Positions 188 to 23,279 of a stretch of 64,000 nt of DNA are shown piece after piece (the stretch's first letter is position 1; each line of letters starts with the position of its first letter). A model generated the notes under the pieces. The model saw nothing but the letters and a program-made list of their open reading frames with translations. It searched no databases and was not told where the DNA came from. The stretch comes from Holtermannia corniformis. Lineage: Eukaryota > Basidiomycota > Tremellomycetes > Holtermanniales. The stretch is from assembly GCA_001599935.1 (NCBI GenBank), contig BCIJ01000046.1:35185-99184 (forward strand). Reading direction: 5' to 3'. Made by a program: the position numbers and the translations under genes.

Positions 188-521
188 TACAGCAAGACTC
201 ATTGACTATGCGTTTCAGGTTAAAACGCGAAATGCGTATAAAGTGAGGGTGAGAAGCAGTAGGCTCGCGTTCAGACCACAACTAGCTTCTTTTAGGCCTC
301 CCAAATAACACTGCCGCAAACCCGTCAGCGCTTGCTGCTCAGCAGAGCGCTGTCACTTGCCTTCTAGGAGATCTAGAAGCCATACAAACCTACTGAGAGA
401 TGTGCATGTTGCTCCAAGAATACATTAAAGCGCAGGGAAAAGAGAAAAGTACATGCTACCCTCACTTTACACGCAACTCGGCGGATTTGCCCACAACGCA
501 TAGTCAATGAGTCTTGCTGTA
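188..521. repeat. 27-bp perfect inverted repeat with longer imperfect arms
   Basis: Bases 188-214 are the exact reverse complement of 495-521 (27 of 27). Further inside, 232-250 matches the reverse complement of 458-476 with two mismatches, so the arms are about 63 bp each and enclose about 207 bp. No open reading frame of convincing quality lies in the loop. This could be a remnant of a foldback or MITE-like element; no target-site duplication was recognised. The rest of 1-642 shows nothing else clear beyond a short ATATTTGCAAATAT palindrome near 78. Confidence 0.75.
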
Positions 522-6925: not shown

Positions 6926-9900
6926 TCAAGCTGCCGTCCACGTGAAAAGATCACTCAGCTCATCTTCACCCTGGATTCTGATCTTCCACCAAAGTTTCCT
7001 TTGGACCCACGCTGGAAGTTGCTCGAACCTCGTCACCGCTTGATCATAAGCTAGCTCGGTTCGGAGCTGGGCGGGGCGTCCGTTGGGGCGGGTGACCATC
7101 GTGCAGTTGTGCTGTGGGCTCGGATTGTCTGTCCCGAACCCAATCCAGCCGCAGGCGGAACGGCATACGGCGAGGTGGCCTGGTCTGCGCGCGAGGTTGG
7201 TCTCGGCTCTGAGCAGGTTTGTGTAGGGCGTCAACTGGTGGGCGTGCGGAGGGACGAACGCAAACCGGTTGTCGGTCGAGATGGTCGAGACCCGAGTCGA
7301 GAGGAAAACGTCACGTCATCACCGAGCTGGGTAGCGAGCCAGCCGTCGGCCGTGTTGTGGAGCAGCAGCGGCCAGTCGCTTTCGGGTGGAGCTGCCGGCA
7401 GCCATCCGTAGAGTGCCGTCAGGCTTGACCAAGCGTCTTCAATCTCCTCGTCAGAGGCAGCGACGAGACCAAGCGCTTCGAGCGCATCGAGCCAGTGGCG
7501 AACAGCTGTATCTGCCATTTCCTTGACAATGACGGCAATGTCTTTCTCGTCGACCGCTTGCTCTGCGCCGTTGATGGTGATTGGAGCGCCGCTCTCATGC
7601 GCCATTTCGCCGCCTTGCCCTCCAGCTGCGCCCGCTTGCGGCTCCTGGCCTTCTTCGCTCTCCGGATGCTCGTTCTCTGGAAGCTCGACGTAACCGGCAG
7701 ACCAGTCGATGGCGTCAACGTTGCGACCGCGGGCAAGGTAGCTGTGGCAAACGCGACCATATGCCGCGAGGCCGAGTTGAGGATGCGAGAGGAGCTCGTC
7801 TTGATAAACAATCTGCCTCACGAGAACGCCGTGCTTCCGGCTGCGCGTGCGGGGGTGCTTGGCAGTGACGCCGTTGGCCTTCATTGCCGCTGCAACGCCC
7901 TCGCAGCCACGGCGACCGTTACTCTTCGTCAGCGCACATTGCATGCACGTCATGGCCAGCAACTGGCGATCAGGATCCGCGAAGCCATCGGGGAACTTGG
8001 CGAGCAGGGCTAGCGCATTGGGAAGGGAGATAGTTGAGGTGAAGTCGAGAACGGGTCGGTTCTCGCTGTATTCACGGAGATGGACATTGTAGAGGTGAGC
8101 GCGCATGTCAGGCGTGAGGTCGACCTTCGCCCATTGGTCGCGCCTCTGCGCGCTGTTGTTCATGTCCTTGGTCTCCTCGACGCTCATCCACCACTCTTCC
8201 ACCTGCTCGTCGGTGTAATGAGCAGGCCGTGGTGGTAAGAGGGTGCTGCTGGCTGGTACACCCTCTTCCAGCTTGGTGGTTCGCATCGCGGCGACTTGCT
8301 CCCACTGCGCTTGGCGTTCGGCGGACCGCGGCGCACCGGCGGCGTACGTGTGCCGGTGAACGTCGTTGGCACGGGCGGTCTTGCCTCCACGGCTCAGCAT
8401 CGCGCGGAACTGTACATGTCAGTGTATGGCCCAGTGCGCGGCAGCTAGATTCACCTCTTCACCGTCGCCAGCTGCATCTGCCTCTGCAAGCGCCTTACGC
8501 AACGCTCCTGCTCCTCGTTCGGAACCGAGCCACCTTTGACGGTCGCGGAGGGCCTGACGTGCCTCTTCGAGCAGGCCAAGCAGCCCGCGGCGCTGGCATT
8601 CGTCCCAGACGAGCTTATGTGCGTCGACGAAACATTGCCGCTATTCGGCGTCCGCTTCGGGCGATGAACTGCCTCTGGCAATGCCTGCCACGAGTTCTTC
8701 CACGCAGACAGCGATAAGCTCCGACAGCTGCGTCATCCTGCCAGAACCTGCGCGATGGCTGAATCGTACTTGTGACGCCCGTGGTCGGTCTGCAGCAAGT
8801 CAGATCGCCCTCGCCATACAATATGTGCTCACCATCAAAACAACGATCGTCCACAGCGACACCCGAACCGGTCCAATACGACACACGCCAATGCTCCCCT
8901 GCCAATCGATCCAATTGGGTGGATACAGGTTTCTCCATTTGATGCTCACGTACGACGTGTCGACCAAGATGTACAGGGTCAAGACGTCGATGGCGTCGCC
9001 TGCGAGGAATGCGTCGAGGATCTCCGTCGATTGCGGGTCGGGGGACTCGAACAGACGGGACAGTACGCCGCTCATCAGCAAATTCGCGTTCTAAGTACGT
9101 CAGCTAGCTATCGGCTGACAGATAGTGCTCACCTTGTCGCTCAAAACCCGCAACACAAGGGACCGATACCGAACGAGGTAGCGGACGAGGTTAGAGACCG
9201 TGAGCGAAATATGGCGATGAACCAGGCATACCACCCATAGGTCCACATAGGCCCCGAGAGCGATAATCGACTCCACGGGCGACAGTGCCGCTTCCGGTCG
9301 TATACCCATAGCGAGTAAACGTATGCACCTTGCGAGGGTCGGTCCCGGGCCAATTTGCGAGCTGTAGAAGCCGGTGTCTGCATCGACGACAGTGTACGCT
9401 GCCTCTCTTGCCATGTCCTTGCCGACGATAACAGAGAGCGCACGTTCGCCAGGCATTGTGCGGAAAGCTGTGGCAAAGCGCTTGGCGGCAGCGAGTGGCA
9501 CGTCGCGCGCGAGCGCACGTCGATCAATGCCGGCACTGACGGCGTTGCCGATGAGTTTGGCAGACCGGCAAATAGGCGGATGGAGTCGTCGAAGTCGAGC
9601 GCGCACCTTGCGATGGCGGGTGTAGTCGTCGTGTCTTGCAGCAGCGAGGAGGGCGACATTTTGAGATCTCTGCACTCGTACAGGTGGTGGAAGCCTCCCG
9701 GCGCCGAGTTGAGGGAGATGCCATACATTGAGCCGACCAGCGCTCGCTCGGCCGCCTGCAAGTCGCGGCGCTGGCGCAAGCCGAGCGTTGAGCACGGGAT
9801 CTGCGTCTTGAAGCGATAGATAGTCCAAGACGCCGCCGGTAAGTCGTTTTCTTGGAGCCACTCGGCTGCCACTTTGACGAACCGCGCGAAGCGGCCCACT

Positions 9901-10760
9901 TGCCATCGGCCATGTCGTTGACGATGCGCTCCATGGGGTCGACGGCAACAGTGATACCGCCATACTTGATGAAGGCGCAGTCTTGGCCATCCTCGAGTAG
10001 TATGTGGAGCTGTGCTATGACGTGTCGGGCCCAAGGGTCATCGGCTGAGATGGTCAGCAAGATGACGTAAGGAGTTCGGAACTTACCGGGATGCCAACTG
10101 GCGTAGGTATCGAGCTCACCGAGTTCGTCTTGCTCGTAGCGCCGCGCGCGAAGATCTAGCTGTCAAGAGCCCTCTTCGTCATCGCCCATGTCGGAGTCTG
10201 CATCGTTGTCGTCTTCGTCCAGGTCGATGGAAGCCGGCACGGCCCCGAGCCCTTTGCGCTTGCGCAGCGTGACGGGGTTCGTAGAACGCTTGCGTTGCCG
10301 CCCGTCGGCGTCGTCGGCGTCGTCGGCTTCGGCGTCGTTGGCTTTCTCGTCCCCACCATCTTGAATGTCTCGAATGCGATGGGTCGGCGGACAGGGGGCT
10401 GACGGCGTTGACGAGGATATCAGTCGCTGCAGGTTGAATCTGGCCATGTCAGCGTGAGAACCTGCAGTGCAGCACTCACGATCTCGAGTTCGCCGCCTAG
10501 CACATCACTCTCGTGCAACGCTCTACGCATGCGGTCGACCCACGTTCTGAAGCGCTCCTCTTGCCGATCCCGACAAGTGGCGGGTCGAGCGCCGGAAAGA
10601 GCGCGGGGGGGAGAACAAGCGACGGCCCAGCGACGGCCGAGGATGCAACGCAGCGAGCACGCAGCGATAGCCGACGCCGACGCCAAAAAGATCATTGCGT
10701 CTTTCAGATCATCGAGCTGCTTCCTAGGAGTGAGCTGTTGATCACACGGCCTCTCAGTCG
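6926..10760 (-). pseudogene. copy A: decayed paralogue of the GIY-YIG-like/zinc-cluster gene at 13356-17360
   Basis: It is collinear over its whole length with the intact copy B. It keeps the N-terminal block (MRRALHESDVLGGELEI), the acidic linker, the nuclease-like core (KYGGITVAVDPMERI, then AERALVGSM and LNSAPGG), the hydrophobic segment before LVLRVLSDK, the block YPPNWIDWQG, and a C-terminal half with CMQC...GRRGC and CGWIGFG...PQHNC. It is broken in several places. The conserved Trp of EEGSW is TGA (complement of 10163-10165). One base is lost near the acidic linker, bases are lost after GKW near 9890, and the frame changes again near 9560-9600 and near 7231. The second cysteine cluster has spacing CxxxC instead of CxxC. 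The 6929-8400 part still has a long open frame. Confidence 0.72.
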
Positions 10761-13355: not shown

Positions 13356-16300
13356 CTAGGCTGCCACCCAGGTGAAGTACTCGTTCATTTCCACCTTGCC
13401 ATCGACCCTCACCTCCCACCAGATCCTCTGCTGGACCCACACTGGCATCTCATCAAATTGTCTCACGCCCTGGTTCACCTCGAGCGCAGCTCGTTTCTGT
13501 TGCGGTCGACCGTTCGGGTTGATGTGATTGCGACAGTTGTGCTGAGGGCTAGGAGCTGCGGTACCGAACCCGACCCAGCCGCATTCTTGGCATACGGCGC
13601 GGAAGCCAGGCTTGCGTTTGGGGTTCTTTACAAGGCTCAATAGCTTCTTGTATGGCTCGATGTGAGCAGGGTGTGGTGCCTGCAACGCGAAGCGTGGATC
13701 GGGCGTGATCGTGGAGACGTTTGATGATAGATGGCGATTGCCGAGCTGGGTGGCGAGCCACGCGGGTGAGGTGTTTGGGTGGACAAGCAGCGACGTTTCC
13801 GACGCCGGTGGTTCTTCCGGCAGCCAGACATGTGTCGTCCTCAGCCCCGTCCATGCGTCGCTGACCTGTTGCAGCGTCGCTGCAATAAGCTGTAGTGCGT
13901 CGAGTTGAGCTTCCCAGTGTTCCTCGAGCGTTTGAAGCAACGCAGCCGGACTGAGATCGTCATCGGTGTCGAGCTCTTGATCATACTCCACGTCGTCGCC
14001 ATCGTCCTCGACTGCACTGTCGTCACCATCGCTCTCGTAGCCCATTAAGCTGCCTTCATCGCCTTCGATCTCGTAGTCGGCGCTTGGTTCCGAGCCGTCG
14101 TCGCTGGCGTCGCCGTCGCGCTCTTCCACATGCTCGCCCTCGCTGACCTCGTCCTCGGTCGCGATCTCTTCTTGGTCCTCCTCTTCTTCTGACGCAAGGA
14201 CATAGCCAGCGTTCCACTTGACTGTTGTCGGATCTTTCCCTTGAGCGAGGTAGGAGTGGCAGACCTCTGTGTATGCGGCCAGGCCGACATGGGGGTGAGC
14301 GAGAAGGTCGTCTTGAAAAACAAGCGGCTTGGCGAGAACGCCACAAGCGCGGTCGCGGGTACGGCCGTCTTTCGAGCTGTTGCCATTGGCCTCCATGACA
14401 GCCTGGACGCCTTCGCAGCCGTGTCGACCATTCTGATCCGTCAAAGCCCACACACCGCAATGAAGGCACGAAATCGCCAAATACTGATGCCGCGGGTCTT
14501 CAAAGGCTTGAGGAAATTTTGCCATATCCGCTAGTGCCATCGGCAGCGTGATGGTGGATGTGAAGGATATCCGGGGGCGGTTCTCGGTGTACTCGCGGAG
14601 GTGTACGTTGTACAGCTCCATCCGCTTGGCTTGCGTAAGGTCAATGCCGGCTATCTGTTCGAGGCGCTGCTTGCTCATGTTCATGTTGGTGTTGCGCTTG
14701 GCGCCTAGCCACCATGCTTCCACTTGCTCGTCATCGTAGTGATGTGGCCGGGGTGGGAGGTTGCTCGAATCAAGGGGGATTCCCTCCTCAAACTTGGCGA
14801 GACGGACAGCAGTGACTTGTTGGAACTGAGCCATGCGCTCATCTGAGAACGGGAGCCCCGCGGTGTAGTAATGGCGCAAGTGGTCGTTGGCTCTCGCCGT
14901 TCTGCCGCCTCGGCCGATCACTGCTCGGAACTGTCGGCGTCAGTGGACGACCGCTCTTATAGCAACGGAACTTACCTCTTCACCCTCACCAGTAGCATCC
15001 GCGTCAGCGAGCGCTTTGGCAAACGATGCCTTGCCGCGCTCGGAGCCAAGCCACCCTTGCCGCTCCCTGAGCGCTTGACGCGCTTCTTCGAGTGCAGCGT
15101 TGAGGCCGCGGCGTTGGCACTCGGCGACAACACGCTTTCGTGCAGCGACGAACCATGCGCGTTGAAGTTCGTCATCTGCGGGTGGCGGATCTGAGCGACT
15201 GATCGCCGCCACAATCTCCTCAGCAACAGCTGCAACAATCTCGGAGAGCTGAGTCATGCGTGCAAGGGCGCGTGCCACAGTCGGGTCGTACTTCATGCGT
15301 CCATGGTGGGTCTGCAAAGTTTCAGCGGTCTGATAGAACGGCGAATTGGCGCTTACCATGAACACCACCAAAGTCCAGAATGCGGCTCTGACTGGCCCGA
15401 TCCGGCAGACGATAACACACCCTTGCCAGTCGATCCATCCTGGCGGATACAGTTCGCGCCACTTCTTGCCAACGTAGCCGGGGTGGACGGTGGCAAACAG
15501 ACTCAGAACGTCGACGGTCTCACCGGCGAGAAACCGGTCAAGTACATTGTTGGAGTCGGCCGTCTGTGTTTCGAAAATGTCCGACATGGCCCCAGACATC
15601 ATCAAGTTCGCCGTCTGATGGCGTCAGCTAACTCGCTCGCCAGGTGAACTGCACTCACCTTTGCACTGAGCACTCGCATTACCAGGAATCGACAGCGCAC
15701 GAGATAGCGCACGAGAACGATGATTGCAAGCCAAACATGTCGATGGCGCAGACACACGGCCCACAAGTCGCAGAATCCGCCAAAGGTGGGTACCAGCTCG
15801 GCCGTGGTCCGTTCGGCCTCTGGTCGACAGCCCATGGCTAGCGCTCTCATCCTCTTGGCCAGCGCGGGTCCAGGTCCGACTGTGGCTCCGTAGAAGCCCG
15901 CCTCGGGGTGGGTTTGGGCCTTGGCGCCCTCGTGGGTGATGTCCTTGCCGATGAGGACCGACAGCGCGCGGCCGCCTGGCATCACTCGGAAGGACGTTGC
16001 CTCCCGTTTTGCGGCGGCGAGGGGGATGTTGCGTGCGAGCGAGCCCTCGTCGGTGCCAGCCACGCCAGCGTTCCCGATCAGCTTGCCAGTGTCAGGCAGT
16101 TCGGCGAAAAGCTTGACCGAGCTGTCGAAATCCCGCTTACACTGGCGGATAAGTGCCGCGGAGGGCAGCTCGACCTCGTCATCGACCAGCACTGATCGAG
16201 TCTGCTGCAGGTCGCGAAACTCGTACAGGTGGTAGAATCCGCCCGGGGCGGAGTTCAGGCAGAGACCAGCCATCGAGCCGACAAGCGCGCGCTCGGCAGC

Positions 16301-17360
16301 TTGCAAGTCGCCACGGGCGCGTAAGCCCAAGGAGCTGCAGGCAACTTGCGTCTTGAAGCGGTAGATCTTCCATGAAGCCGCTGGCTTGTCGTGCTCAAGC
16401 CGCCATTTTGCGGCGACATTGACAAAGCGAGAGAATCTTGTGCATGAGCCTTTTTCGATGTCGGTGGTGATGCGCTGAAGCGGATCGACTTTGACGGTGA
16501 TACCGCCATATTTCACAAAGGCCTTGTTGTGGCCGTCCTGACGTGAGATAGCGAGTTGTGCGAGCATGTGATGGGCCCAAGGGGCGTCGGCTGAGATGGT
16601 CAGTAAAGGAAGCTAGACAGCAGCACCGGACTCACCAGGATGAGACATGGCGTATGCCTCGAGCTCACTTTGGAGCCATTCGACTTCATCGTCTTCGTAG
16701 CGCCGCACGCGGAGATAGAGCTGCCAAGAGCCCTCTTCGTCGTCGCCCGTGTCAGAGTCTGCATCCTCTCCGTCTTCGTCCAAGTCGATGGGAGCCGACA
16801 GGGCCTCGAGCCTTTGGCGCTTGCACGGCGTGATGGGTTTCACAGAGCGCTTTCGTTTGGCGCCCGTCGGTGTCTCGTCGGCATCGTCGGCGTCGTCGGC
16901 GTCGGCGTCGGCGTCGGCGTCAGCGTCAGCGTTATCGTCGGCATCGGCGTCCTCGGCGTCGGCTTCCTCGTAAACTCCCACCACCTCGAACGTCTCGAAT
17001 GTAGATGGGTCGGCCGACAGCGGGTTGACGGCGTTGACGAGAATATCATACGCCGCGGGTTGGATCTGGCCATGTCAGCGTGAGAACCTGCAGTGCGGCA
17101 CTCACGATCTCGAGCTCGCCCGCCAGCACATCGCTCTCATCTAGCGCCCTGCGCATGCCGTCGACCCACGATTCGAAGCGCTCCTTTTGATCATCTGCCT
17201 CGGCAAACCCATCTTGCAAAAGCGCCCTTGCTGACTGCGATACCGTGTATGAGTACTCGCCAAGCTCGCCACTGATGATGTCCGGTACCAGACTCGGCGT
17301 GACTTGTTCGGGTTCTTGAATCGGTGGGGCTGCCAGGATGGAATGAACAGCAGCGGCCAT
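13356..17360 (-). CDS. copy B: intact large protein with GIY-YIG-like core and two C2HC-type zinc clusters
   Basis: There are six exons: 17106-17360, 16636-17065, 15659-16590, 15357-15614, 14976-15311 and 13356-14930. Their lengths sum to 3,786 nt (1,261 residues), with introns of 40-45 nt and perfect GT...AG ends. Order along the protein: an N-terminal helical region; an Asp/Ala repeat with a basic KRKR patch; a core with KYGGIT (about 255-260), R268, a strand KIYRF, E328 and N341, spaced as in GIY-YIG nucleases; a hydrophobic stretch (VWLAIIVLVRYLV); an Arg/Ala-rich helical segment; and two clusters, CxxC-x11-HGC (about 892-909) and CxxC-x13-HxC (about 1184-1203). The family is unrecognised. 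The nuclease reading is inference from motif order; a canonical GIY tyrosine strand is not evident. A paralogue and a fragment lie just downstream. Confidence 0.7.
16861..16975 (-). repeat. GTC/GGC trinucleotide-like tract encoding an Asp/Ala repeat
   Basis: An imperfect array of gac-gcc units (seen as gtcggc on the plus strand) encodes an acidic low-complexity stretch dominated by Asp-Ala within exon 2 of copy B. In copy A the homologous array is shorter and preceded by a one-base loss. Such arrays expand and contract readily. Confidence 0.8.
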
Positions 17361-20589: not shown

Positions 20590-20682
20590 GGACAAATGGC
20601 CGAGAGGTCTAAGGCGCATGCTTCAGGATTTTCATATCACCACGCATGTCTTCGGGCGTGGGTTCGAATCCCACTTTGTTCA
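20590..20682 (+). tRNA. tRNA-Leu (anticodon CAG) with a 15-nt intron
   Basis: The cloverleaf is complete. The acceptor is GGACAAA (20590-20596) with TTTGTTC (20675-20681) and discriminator A. The D arm is GCC...GGC. The anticodon stem is CATGC (20617-20621) with GCATG (20644-20648), and the loop holds CAG at 20624-20626 after T33. A 15-nt intron follows position 37, the usual nuclear location. A long type-II variable arm (20649-20657) and a T arm GTGGG TTCGAAT CCCAC complete it. The variable arm plus the A discriminator fit leucine, decoding CUG. T runs at 20687-20691 and 20694-20698 can terminate Pol III. No CCA is encoded, as expected for a nuclear gene. Confidence 0.93.
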
Positions 20683-20698
20683 CAACTTTTTGCTTTTT

Positions 20699-21962: not shown

Positions 21963-22618
21963 TCAAGACTGCAGCGCCGCGCCGGTCGCACCCGTCTGCA
22001 GCGGACCCCCACGCTGACCTGCACTCGCCAAGCAGCCTTCGACGACATCGAGCAGGTGACGGTTTTCGAGTGCGGCTTGAACGCGTTCCTTGTCGTTGAG
22101 CTGCTTGTTGACGGCGTGTTCGGATTGATGCATGCCGGCCTTGATCCTGAGATCGACTTTGTACCTGGGCGGGAGGGCGCGAAGGAGGCGAACGCGGAGG
22201 GAGAGGCCTGCGCGTCAGTCTAGCCCTATACGGAAGACGTACCAATCAGAGTGGCCATGCTGCAATGAGGGATCGTCGGGGTCAACTCGACCAGCACATG
22301 ATTCTTGGCCACCTTGATCTGATCCAGGGTGACGACGGCGAGCTGCTCGAGTGTGAGGGGGTGTTCTGGATCCGTGATTGACCGCAGGAGATCTAAAGTC
22401 AGCACAGGCAACGGTGGCGAACACGTACCAAACACTTCTTGGGCGTCAATCTCCTCTTCGTCGTCGTCCGATTCGAGGCTGCCGTCGAATTGCTCCTCCT
22501 GCCAGAGTGCTCGGATCGCCTGCTTGCCTTTGAGATCGGCATGCGCTCCTCGCCGACTGGGTTTGCTGCTGGACGCGAGGATCGTCGGGTTCGAGTTGTC
22601 GAGGGCTCGTGCGGACAT
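21963..22618 (-). CDS. CIA2: Cia2 (MIP18/FAM96) cytosolic Fe-S targeting factor
   Basis: The protein begins [14 protein letters not shown], then an acidic linker. The conserved domain follows: [18 protein letters not shown], then [17 protein letters not shown] with the reactive cysteine, then RSLPPRFKV and [17 protein letters not shown]. These are hallmarks of the Cia2/FAM96 family (DUF59-like fold), the targeting subunit that, with Cia1 and Met18, hands Fe-S clusters to nuclear and cytosolic apoproteins. There are at least two introns (about 22227-22250 and 22393-22430). The C-terminal tail after [13 protein letters not shown] is short and Gly/Gln-rich. It is divergent from the SDHAF4 gene with 164 bp between the starts. 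Confidence 0.9.
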
Positions 22619-22782
22619 GGTGGACCAGCTTTCACGGCGTTCAAGACGTTCTAAGTGATGCTATCTGCAGTGCAGTGATGGACGCGTCGAAAGGTCAACG
22701 GCCGAGACTGACGTCGGGCGATGCAAAAGGTCCCGCTCCGATCAGTCATCCAACCGACAACCTCTTCAACACCGTAGCAACC
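22619..22782. promoter_or_regulatory. shared intergenic region of the divergent CIA2 and SDHAF4 genes
   Basis: Only 164 bp separate the two start codons, so both promoters must lie here or overlap the 5' ends. No defined site was recognised. The role is inferred from the arrangement. Confidence 0.4.
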
Positions 22783-23161
22783 ATGATTCGCACTCTGAAA
22801 GCCTCCAGCTCGCGGCTCTCACGCAGCCTACACACCACCTCGTCCGTCTTCAAATCATTCAACCAACCGCGTCCGCCACCCCTCCCGAAAGCCGATCAAG
22901 ACGAGTTCGATGCTCTGATCAAGGCCAACCAAACGATCGGTGCTTCGCCACTCATGGCCGCACCGAAAGAAGAGCTCCAACACCGCGATCTCAGGAAACC
23001 GGTCAAGCCTGAATTCGAGGGCGAGGTGAACCCAAAGACGGGAGAACGCGGTGGGCCGAAGCGAGACCCGTTTCTGGCCGGGGATGGAGACTGGCAGTAT
23101 GCTGGCCGTGTGACTGTACGTGATGGCTGCTTGGGCGGGCTGACGATCGCAGGACTTTTAA
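22783..23161 (+). CDS. SDH8: succinate dehydrogenase assembly factor 4 (Sdh8/SDHAF4)
   Basis: The N-terminus MIRTLKASSSRLSRSLHTTS is a typical mitochondrial presequence rich in Arg/Ser and lacking acidic residues. The C-terminus carries the DUF1674 signature: EFEGEVNPKTGERGGPKRDP followed by DGDWQYAGRVTDF. The last three residues come from a second exon: an intron of about 38 nt (GTACGT...CGCAG) ends at 23152 and is followed by GAC TTT TAA. SDHAF4 binds flavinylated Sdh1 in the matrix and promotes its assembly with Sdh2. The length (about 112 residues) fits the family. Without the splice, the frame would run on into a spurious tail. Confidence 0.92.
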
Positions 23162-23279
23162 CAATGTGCGCATTCATGCATCTCTTCTCGTAGAGTACCA
23201 GGGTGTGTTGAACACGTCCAGAGAGAAGCACAGTGGGGGACGGCACCGAGCAGGAATAGGGTGGCGGTAATCAAGCAAG

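What the first reader, a model, noticed from the sequence alone, without database searches (positions are those of the whole stretch)
15659..16590. GIY-YIG-like nuclease core in a large unrecognised fungal gene
Seen: in exon 3 of the copy B gene, KYGGIT is followed eight residues later by R (DPLQRI; PMERI in copy A), then a predicted strand WKIYRF, then AERALVGSM and LNSAPGG. Known: GIY-YIG nucleases have a YIG-type strand, a catalytic Arg about 8-10 residues on, a catalytic Glu about 60-70 residues on, and an Asn just after it. The order and spacing fit (about 255, 268, 328, 341). Inference: this is a divergent GIY-YIG domain fused to acidic, hydrophobic and zinc-cluster regions, an architecture I cannot match to a described family. 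A canonical GIY tyrosine strand is not evident, so catalysis may be altered.
Basis: partly seen in the sequence, partly recalled or inferred. Interest (0 to 1): 0.82.

Follow-up and report, generated by a model that had tools for sequence, protein, structure and literature searches.

The report
Orphan fungal GIY-YIG-like nuclease family
A large gene in a yeast-like fungus, with four relatives found in the same genome, carries in fixed order and spacing the key residues of a known DNA-cutting enzyme class, in a protein that otherwise resembles nothing in the databases searched.

Summary
The missing GIY tyrosine strand has a candidate in exon 2: (W/Y/H)-x-LY-(L/V)-R, Tyr202, in B, C, D and E. 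GxT-x4-P-x2-R spacing occurs in 5 of 20, and E-x12-N in 10 of 20, T5orf172/MUG113-type references. Formal support is weak: no GIY-YIG hit in Pfam, NCBIfam or PDB, hhalign E 0.08-0.44, a summed profile score reached by 14 of 388 shuffles, and uninformative AlphaFold models. The motif itself, in all four rows, arose in 0 of 20000 shuffles (2 of 20000). Two searches of a protein database that holds many Tremellomycetes found no relative. Copies B and C are intact; A, D and E are decayed. Best reading: a lineage-restricted, fast-evolving GIY-YIG-like nuclease with a long insert, a second conserved block and two CCHC-type sites. Membership in GIY-YIG is not shown.

The parts
13356..17360 (-). Copy B gene, 1261-aa protein. 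Exons 17360-17106, 17065-16636, 16590-15659, 15614-15357, 15311-14976, 14930-13356; introns 17105-17066, 16635-16591, 15658-15615, 15356-15312, 14975-14931
   Evidence: Spliced model open from ATG to stop; introns 40-45 nt with GT..AG, CTGAC near the 3' end in 4 of 5; introns 1-4 at homologous places in copy C
15659..16590 (-). Exon 3 (the finding): YIG-like motif to hydrophobic stretch
   Evidence: paralogues
16703..16726 (-). Candidate first (GIY) strand WQLYLRVR, Y202 at 16715-16717, near the end of exon 2
   Evidence: (W/Y/H)-x-LY-(L/V)-R in B, C, D, E; Y202 invariant in those four, D in copy A
16496..16513 (-). YIG-like motif KYGGIT (Y256, G258, T260)
16472..16486 (-). D-P-L-Q-R with P265 and catalytic-type R268 (16472-16474)
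   Evidence: P and R invariant in all five copies
16292..16294 (-). Catalytic-type E328 in DLQAAERA
   Evidence: invariant in all five copies
16238..16258 (-). LNSAPGG: N341 and G345-G346
   Evidence: LNSA(P/N)GG in all five copies
15830..15970 (-). Second conserved block ALSVLIGKDIT...FYG..VGPGPAL...AMG (residues 436-482), function unknown
   Evidence: 29 of 50 aligned residues identical B-C in window 421-480, the highest of the full 60-residue windows; recognisable in copy E
15680..15736 (-). Hydrophobic stretch (residues 514-532), membrane or buried helix
   Evidence: Kyte-Doolittle mean 1.93 in B; 2.36 in C for a stretch that overlaps it in the alignment
14415..14468 (-). CCHC-type site 1, CLHCGVWALTDQNGRHGC
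   Evidence: kept in C, D and E
13533..13592 (-). CCHC-type site 2, CQECGWVGFGTAAPSPQHNC
   Evidence: kept in C and, with wider spacing, E; not located in D
16880..16969 (-). Acidic Asp/Ala repeat linker in exon 2
7001..10569 (-). Copy A, tandem paralogue, decayed (stops and several frame changes); the match reaches the end of the stretch tested, so it may extend below 7001
   Evidence: tblastn with B: five pieces in frames 1,3,2,1,3; 64.7% DNA identity over 2949 aligned positions

Best explanation
Copy B belongs to a small, fast-evolving nuclear gene family of a Tremellomycete-like fungus. It encodes a large protein with a divergent GIY-YIG-like nuclease core (residues about 196-350). Shown: Y202, Y256, G258, T260, R268, E328, N341 and GG keep their order in B, C, D and E, and the protein is under constraint. 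Inferred: strand 1 (LYL, exon 2) and strand 2 (the YIG-like strand) are separated by a helical insert of about 45 residues; R268 starts the first helix; E328 sits in a later helix and binds the catalytic metal; the tyrosines and R268 activate or hold the scissile phosphate; the two CCHC-type sites and the second conserved block position the nucleic acid. It would act as a metal-dependent endonuclease, most plausibly in a DNA-conflict or repair setting.
For: Motif residues invariant in B, C, D and E; all but Y202 also in A. Motif pattern in all four rows in 0 of 20000 and 2 of 20000 column shuffles. GxT-x4-P-x2-R in 5 of 20 and E-x12-N in 10 of 20 T5orf172/MUG113 references. The best local hhalign match of the family alignment to each of three reference sets starts at its YIG-R motif. 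YhbQ/UvrC score reached by 17 of 388 shuffles, sum of three by 14 of 388. Of 8 blocks of the B-C alignment this one scores highest against T5orf172 (13.1; next 12.1) and YhbQ/UvrC (13.5; next 12.4) references. pN below pS: B-C 0.44/0.75 (296 codons), C-D 0.33/0.74 (261), A-B 0.23/0.67 (93). Homologous introns in B and C.
Against: No GIY-YIG hit by Pfam, NCBIfam or PDB sequence search. hhalign E-values 0.08, 0.30 and 0.44 with clean rows; T5orf172 alone reached by 47 of 388 and I-TevI by 112 of 388 shuffles. An earlier, better T5orf172 figure (3 of 380) came from a reference with three junk rows and did not survive their removal; in the two-row block test the T5orf172 match then moves off the YIG motif. 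I-TevI scores another block of the protein higher. In a two-block test the YIG-R block was found in 4 of 4 rows, but the E-N block in 1 of 4; the sum was reached by 17 of 1000 shuffles, B alone by 99 of 1000; another part of B scored slightly higher (11.9 against 10.7) and one of C nearly as high (11.3 against 11.6). AlphaFold pLDDT 32 and 38. Three of five copies are decayed.
Confidence: 0.5

Rival explanations
1. An unrelated alpha/beta domain, particular to this fungal lineage, in which the GIY-YIG-like order of residues is coincidental. The family was built from five paralogues, and conserved G, R, E, N and W are common in many folds.
For: No significant profile match to any GIY-YIG reference; two-block test weak; long insert between the two putative strands.
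Against: All motif positions invariant in unseen homologues with spacings seen in the superfamily; pattern in 0 and 2 of 20000 shuffles.
Confidence: 0.33
2. A GIY-YIG fold kept for binding or scaffolding without cleavage, or with altered chemistry.
For: Strands far apart; divergent strand motifs (YGG/YFG instead of YIG).
Against: Every catalytic-type residue is kept in the intact copies B and C, and in D and E; a dead domain would be expected to lose some.
Confidence: 0.1
3. The family is the coding part of a mobile or selfish element (homing-like or transposon-derived) rather than a host gene. This can be true together with the best explanation.
For: Five copies found, three decayed, two tandem pairs each with one intact and one broken member; GIY-YIG domains occur in selfish elements (PMC1564403, start of abstract and passages).
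Against: Few copies found (the genome search gives lower bounds); spliceosomal-type introns shared by B and C; blastn of A against B and of C against D showed coding-region matches and a few short ones, no obvious terminal repeat (inverted repeats were not searched); no reverse transcriptase, NUMOD or significant transposase domain by Pfam.
Confidence: 0.15

Closest known systems
T5orf172 / MUG113 (PF10544, PF13455), GIY-YIG subfamily
   Same: G-x-T-x4-P-x2-R spacing as in 5 of 20 reference rows (L203, L205, L206, L181, L188) and E-x12-N as in 10 of 20; a first strand (VYV / LYL) followed by an insert of variable length.
   Different: No Pfam hit; profile score not above shuffles with clean rows (47 of 388); first-strand Tyr to YIG Tyr 54 residues; R to E 60 residues; LNSA(P/N)GG instead of the EFF/EWF ending of many references.
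YhbQ/UvrC-type GIY-YIG (PF01541)
   Same: WxLYLxR strand and LYTGIT motif of YhbQ-type rows resemble W-x-LYLR and LYLSYFGIT; hhalign puts YGGIT on YTGIT; 17 of 388 shuffles reach the score.
   Different: E 0.08; long insert between the strands; very different size and partners.
I-TevI-type homing endonucleases
   Same: Order Tyr, YxG, R, E, N; PMC10448857 (passage) also describes a zinc finger elsewhere in I-TevI.
   Different: Profile score no better than shuffles (112 of 388); no NUMOD domains found.
Slx1
   Same: Eukaryotic nuclear GIY-YIG protein; this genome has its own Slx1-like stretch on contig C26 (named by eye from recalled Slx1 features).
   Different: Slx1 lacks the C-terminal Asn and has a RING domain (PMC1564403, passages); here Asn is kept and no RING was found.
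LEM-3/ANKLE1 (COG3680)
   Same: Large eukaryotic GIY-YIG protein with partner domains.
   Different: No ankyrin repeats or LEM domain detected; PMC1564403 (passage) reports COG3680 only from Metazoa and a few bacteria. The name LEM-3/ANKLE1 is recalled.

Membership tests
GIY-YIG superfamily | YIG-type strand motif with conserved Tyr and Gly | tested here: met
   Y256, G258, T260 invariant in all five copies
GIY-YIG superfamily | GIY-type first strand with Tyr | tested here: inconclusive
   Candidate (W/Y/H)-x-LY-(L/V)-R with Y202 in B, C, D, E, but 54 residues before Y256 and not shown to pair with it
GIY-YIG superfamily | Arg in the centre after the YIG motif | tested here: met
   R268 in all five copies, PxxR
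GIY-YIG superfamily | Glu in the C-terminal part | tested here: met
   E328 in all five copies
GIY-YIG superfamily | Asn after the Glu (optional; absent in Slx1) | tested here: met
   N341 in all five copies
GIY-YIG superfamily | Significant profile similarity | tested here: not met
   No GIY-YIG family in Pfam at E up to 10; hhalign E 0.08, 0.30, 0.44 with clean rows
GIY-YIG superfamily | Three-stranded sheet with surrounding helices | tested here: inconclusive
   AlphaFold pLDDT 32 and 38; the secondary-structure order is compatible but unreliable
GIY-YIG superfamily | Metal-dependent nuclease activity | not testable with these tools
   needs protein
T5orf172/MUG113 | Hit to PF10544 or PF13455 | tested here: not met
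Slx1 | RING domain, no C-terminal Asn | tested here: not met
   Asn present; no RING by Pfam
Homing endonucleases | NUMOD DNA-binding domains | tested here: not met
   no NUMOD by Pfam
Penelope-like elements | Reverse transcriptase fused to GIY-YIG | tested here: not met
   no RT domain by Pfam

The most novel reading that the evidence does not exclude
A previously undescribed, lineage-restricted eukaryotic nuclear family of GIY-YIG nucleases with a helical insert splitting the GIY and YIG strands, a second conserved block and two CCHC zinc sites, undergoing birth and death like a component of a genetic conflict.
Probability: 0.42. Interest if true: 0.65.

Novelty: new variant of a known kind. 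Interest (0 to 1): 0.46.

Why it matters
The 2006 survey lists few eukaryotic GIY-YIG groups (Slx1, MutS fusions, COG3680, Penelope elements and three unorthodox homing-type members; PMC1564403, passages). A large family without relatives in the databases searched would add an architecture with split strands and a case of rapid turnover of a nuclease gene in basidiomycete yeasts. It would also show that motif spacing across paralogues can expose a domain that curated profiles miss.

Tried and rejected
Pfam, PHROG, NCBIfam and PDB sequence searches gave no GIY-YIG hit and only chance-level ones, among them TPR_4, Acetyltransf_16, DDE_Tnp_1_2 (E 0.11), unannotated phrog_3091 at E 0.027 with 1 of 8 rows, and de novo TIM barrels at E 0.013 through a helical stretch. 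I did not follow phrog_3091 further.

Two protein-database searches (B residues 200-1276; C residues 155-480) scored 7991 and 7994 candidates and found none at E up to 10. They consider only proteins of 0.55-1.75 times the query length, so short or fragmented gene models would be missed; the B query still held 15 residues of intron 4. A control with the DAD1 gene of the window found 59 proteins among 91 candidates at E up to 1e-5, the best being Kwoniella, Vanrija and other Tremellomycetes, so that group is well held. A viral-contig scan with the exon 3 alignment of B, C and D gave 82 pattern matches and no relative. Prokaryote genome contigs were not scanned with this family.

The weak C3 hit (E 0.043, one stop) was fetched and not accepted as a member by eye. 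Fold search was not run because the models are unreliable. Reference loci: the first extraction ignored strand and was redone. Of the 31 YhbQ/UvrC-type loci, 2 rows under 70 aa were dropped, and E. coli UvrC and I-TevII were added (31 rows). Of 24 T5orf172/MUG113 loci picked from 45, L208 was dropped for a stop and 3 of the remaining 23 were junk rows; the clean set has 20. Of 30 I-TevI-like loci, 25 were tried and 19 distinct rows kept. The invariant residues did not change; the T5orf172 profile support fell from 3 of 380 to 47 of 388, and the sum from 4 of 380 to 14 of 388. One search was not rerun. Failed shuffles dropped: 20 of 400, 12 of 400.

Full report
The window is C46:35185-99184 of a 20.2-Mb, 55-contig genome. 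It carries eukaryotic genes: PP4R3 and MFS_1 hits, and a DAD1 gene whose best database relatives are Kwoniella (77%), Vanrija (75%) and other Tremellomycetes. I infer a Tremellomycete-like fungus.

Gene model. Copy B runs on the minus strand from 17360 to 13356 with five GT-AG introns: 17105-17066, 16635-16591, 15658-15615, 15356-15312 and 14975-14931. The finding's interval is exactly exon 3. Copy C (L009 2307-6234; 1245 aa) is intact, and its four introns fall at the places of B's first four. B and C align in one BLAST segment of 966 positions at 30% identity, E 3e-108.

Family. Searches of the own genome with B exon 3, B exon 5, C exon 3 and an E reading frame find copies A and B in tandem on C46, C and D in tandem on C29, and E on C44 about 5 kb from its end; the tool gives lower bounds. 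A, D and E are decayed: tblastn with an intact copy gives pieces in changing frames, with stops in A and D (some of those stops may lie in introns). Sequencing error cannot be excluded for single frame changes. Substitution patterns show constraint: pN/pS 0.44/0.75 (B-C, 296 codons), 0.33/0.74 (C-D, 261), 0.23/0.67 (A-B, 93); pS is near saturation.

GIY-YIG residues. All five copies keep Y-x-G-x-T-x4-P-x2-R, an E in (D/E)LQxAE, and LNSA(P/N)GG. For example C reads YFGITVGGTPFDR, and E reads YGGQTVATSPTKR with AEFALVACLGVPSLNSANGG. B, C, D and E also share a strand-like (W/Y/H)-x-LY-(L/V)-R near the end of exon 2, 54 residues before Y256. 27 of 140 columns present in B, C, D and E are invariant.

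Statistics. Motif pattern in all four rows: 0 of 20000 column shuffles, 2 of 20000 with the hand-typed rows. hhalign against three reference sets fetched here, with column shuffles of the family as null and clean rows: T5orf172/MUG113 E 0.30, 47 of 388; YhbQ/UvrC E 0.08, 17 of 388; I-TevI E 0.44, 112 of 388; sum 14 of 388. The first run, with three junk rows in the T5orf172 set, had given 3, 14 and 101 of 380, sum 4 of 380; the better T5orf172 figure should not be used. Against the other seven blocks of the B-C alignment the module scores highest for T5orf172 (13.1; next 12.1, though that alignment is not on the YIG motif) and YhbQ/UvrC (13.5; next 12.4), not for I-TevI. A two-block test found the YIG-R block in 4 of 4 rows but the E-N block in 1 of 4; 17 of 1000 shuffles reached the sum, 99 of 1000 for B alone; residues about 660-880 of B scored slightly higher than the module, and a C-terminal part of C nearly as high. 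The case thus rests on exact order, spacing and retention, not on profile significance.

Structure. AlphaFold models of exon 2 end + intron 2 + exon 3 start, and of the start of exon 3 alone, each with two fragments of copy A, had pLDDT 32 and 38. Their secondary-structure order (strand pair, helix starting at PLQR, helix, strand at WKIYRF, helix with E) is compatible with GIY-YIG but carries no weight at that confidence.

Rest of the protein. A second block (residues 436-482; LIGKDIT..FYG..VGPGPAL) is better conserved between B and C than the nuclease-like module and survives in E. A hydrophobic stretch follows. Exon 5 (the last exon, 14930-13356) holds two CCHC-type sites: B 892-909 and 1184-1203, C 894-911 and 1154-1175; E has both, the second with wider spacing, D at least the first. 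The genome's only PF01541 hit is a separate Slx1-like stretch on C26.

Literature. PMC1564403 (passages read) defines the superfamily by GIY and YIG motifs, a central Arg and a C-terminal Glu, with Asn optional, and lists the eukaryotic groups. PMC10448857 (passages read) treats T5orf172 as a GIY-YIG subfamily. PMC4469406 (one passage) mentions GIY-YIG only in mitochondrial introns. Searches for GIY-YIG with fungal/basidiomycete/zinc finger, superfamily/phylogenomic, fungi/nuclear genome/gene family, Tremellomycetes, and T5orf172/fungi listed no title describing such a family; apart from the three papers named I saw only listings. The catalytic roles assigned to Tyr, Arg and Glu are recalled knowledge of GIY-YIG enzymes.

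Verdict. Observation confirmed; interpretation plausible but unproven. I put a GIY-YIG-like nuclease at 0.50 and a different domain at 0.33.

Noticed in passing
window 15830-15970 (-): Second conserved block LIGKDIT...FYG..VGPGPAL...AMG, more conserved between B and C than the nuclease-like module and still recognisable in copy E; no family matched it in the searches of exon 3.
   Followed up: partly
L010 456-1076 and 7849-8499 (C29): F-box-like reading frames (LP(E/D)DVFELII(D/G)EL) on both sides of copy D; recognised by eye, not searched.
   Followed up: no
L021 (C26:95857-95982, -): Slx1-like stretches (FYACYLLRS...RTY / VGSTPDPPRRIRQHNGEI) apparently separated by an intron; the genome's only PF01541 hit.
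   Followed up: partly
window 16880-16969 (-): Asp/Ala repeat coded by a GACGCC-type tandem hexamer in exon 2 of copy B, absent from copy C.
   Followed up: no
L020 4190-4430 (C44): Copy E has a long acidic Asp/Glu run between the second block and the hydrophobic stretch, a different place from B's acidic linker.
   Followed up: no
window 22534-23193 (+): Frame that looks like an SDHAF4/DUF1674-type mitochondrial protein (by eye, recalled).
   Followed up: no
window 20590-20683 (+): ARAGORN reports a tRNA with an odd four-base anticodon (tcag); possibly spurious or intron-bearing.
   Followed up: no
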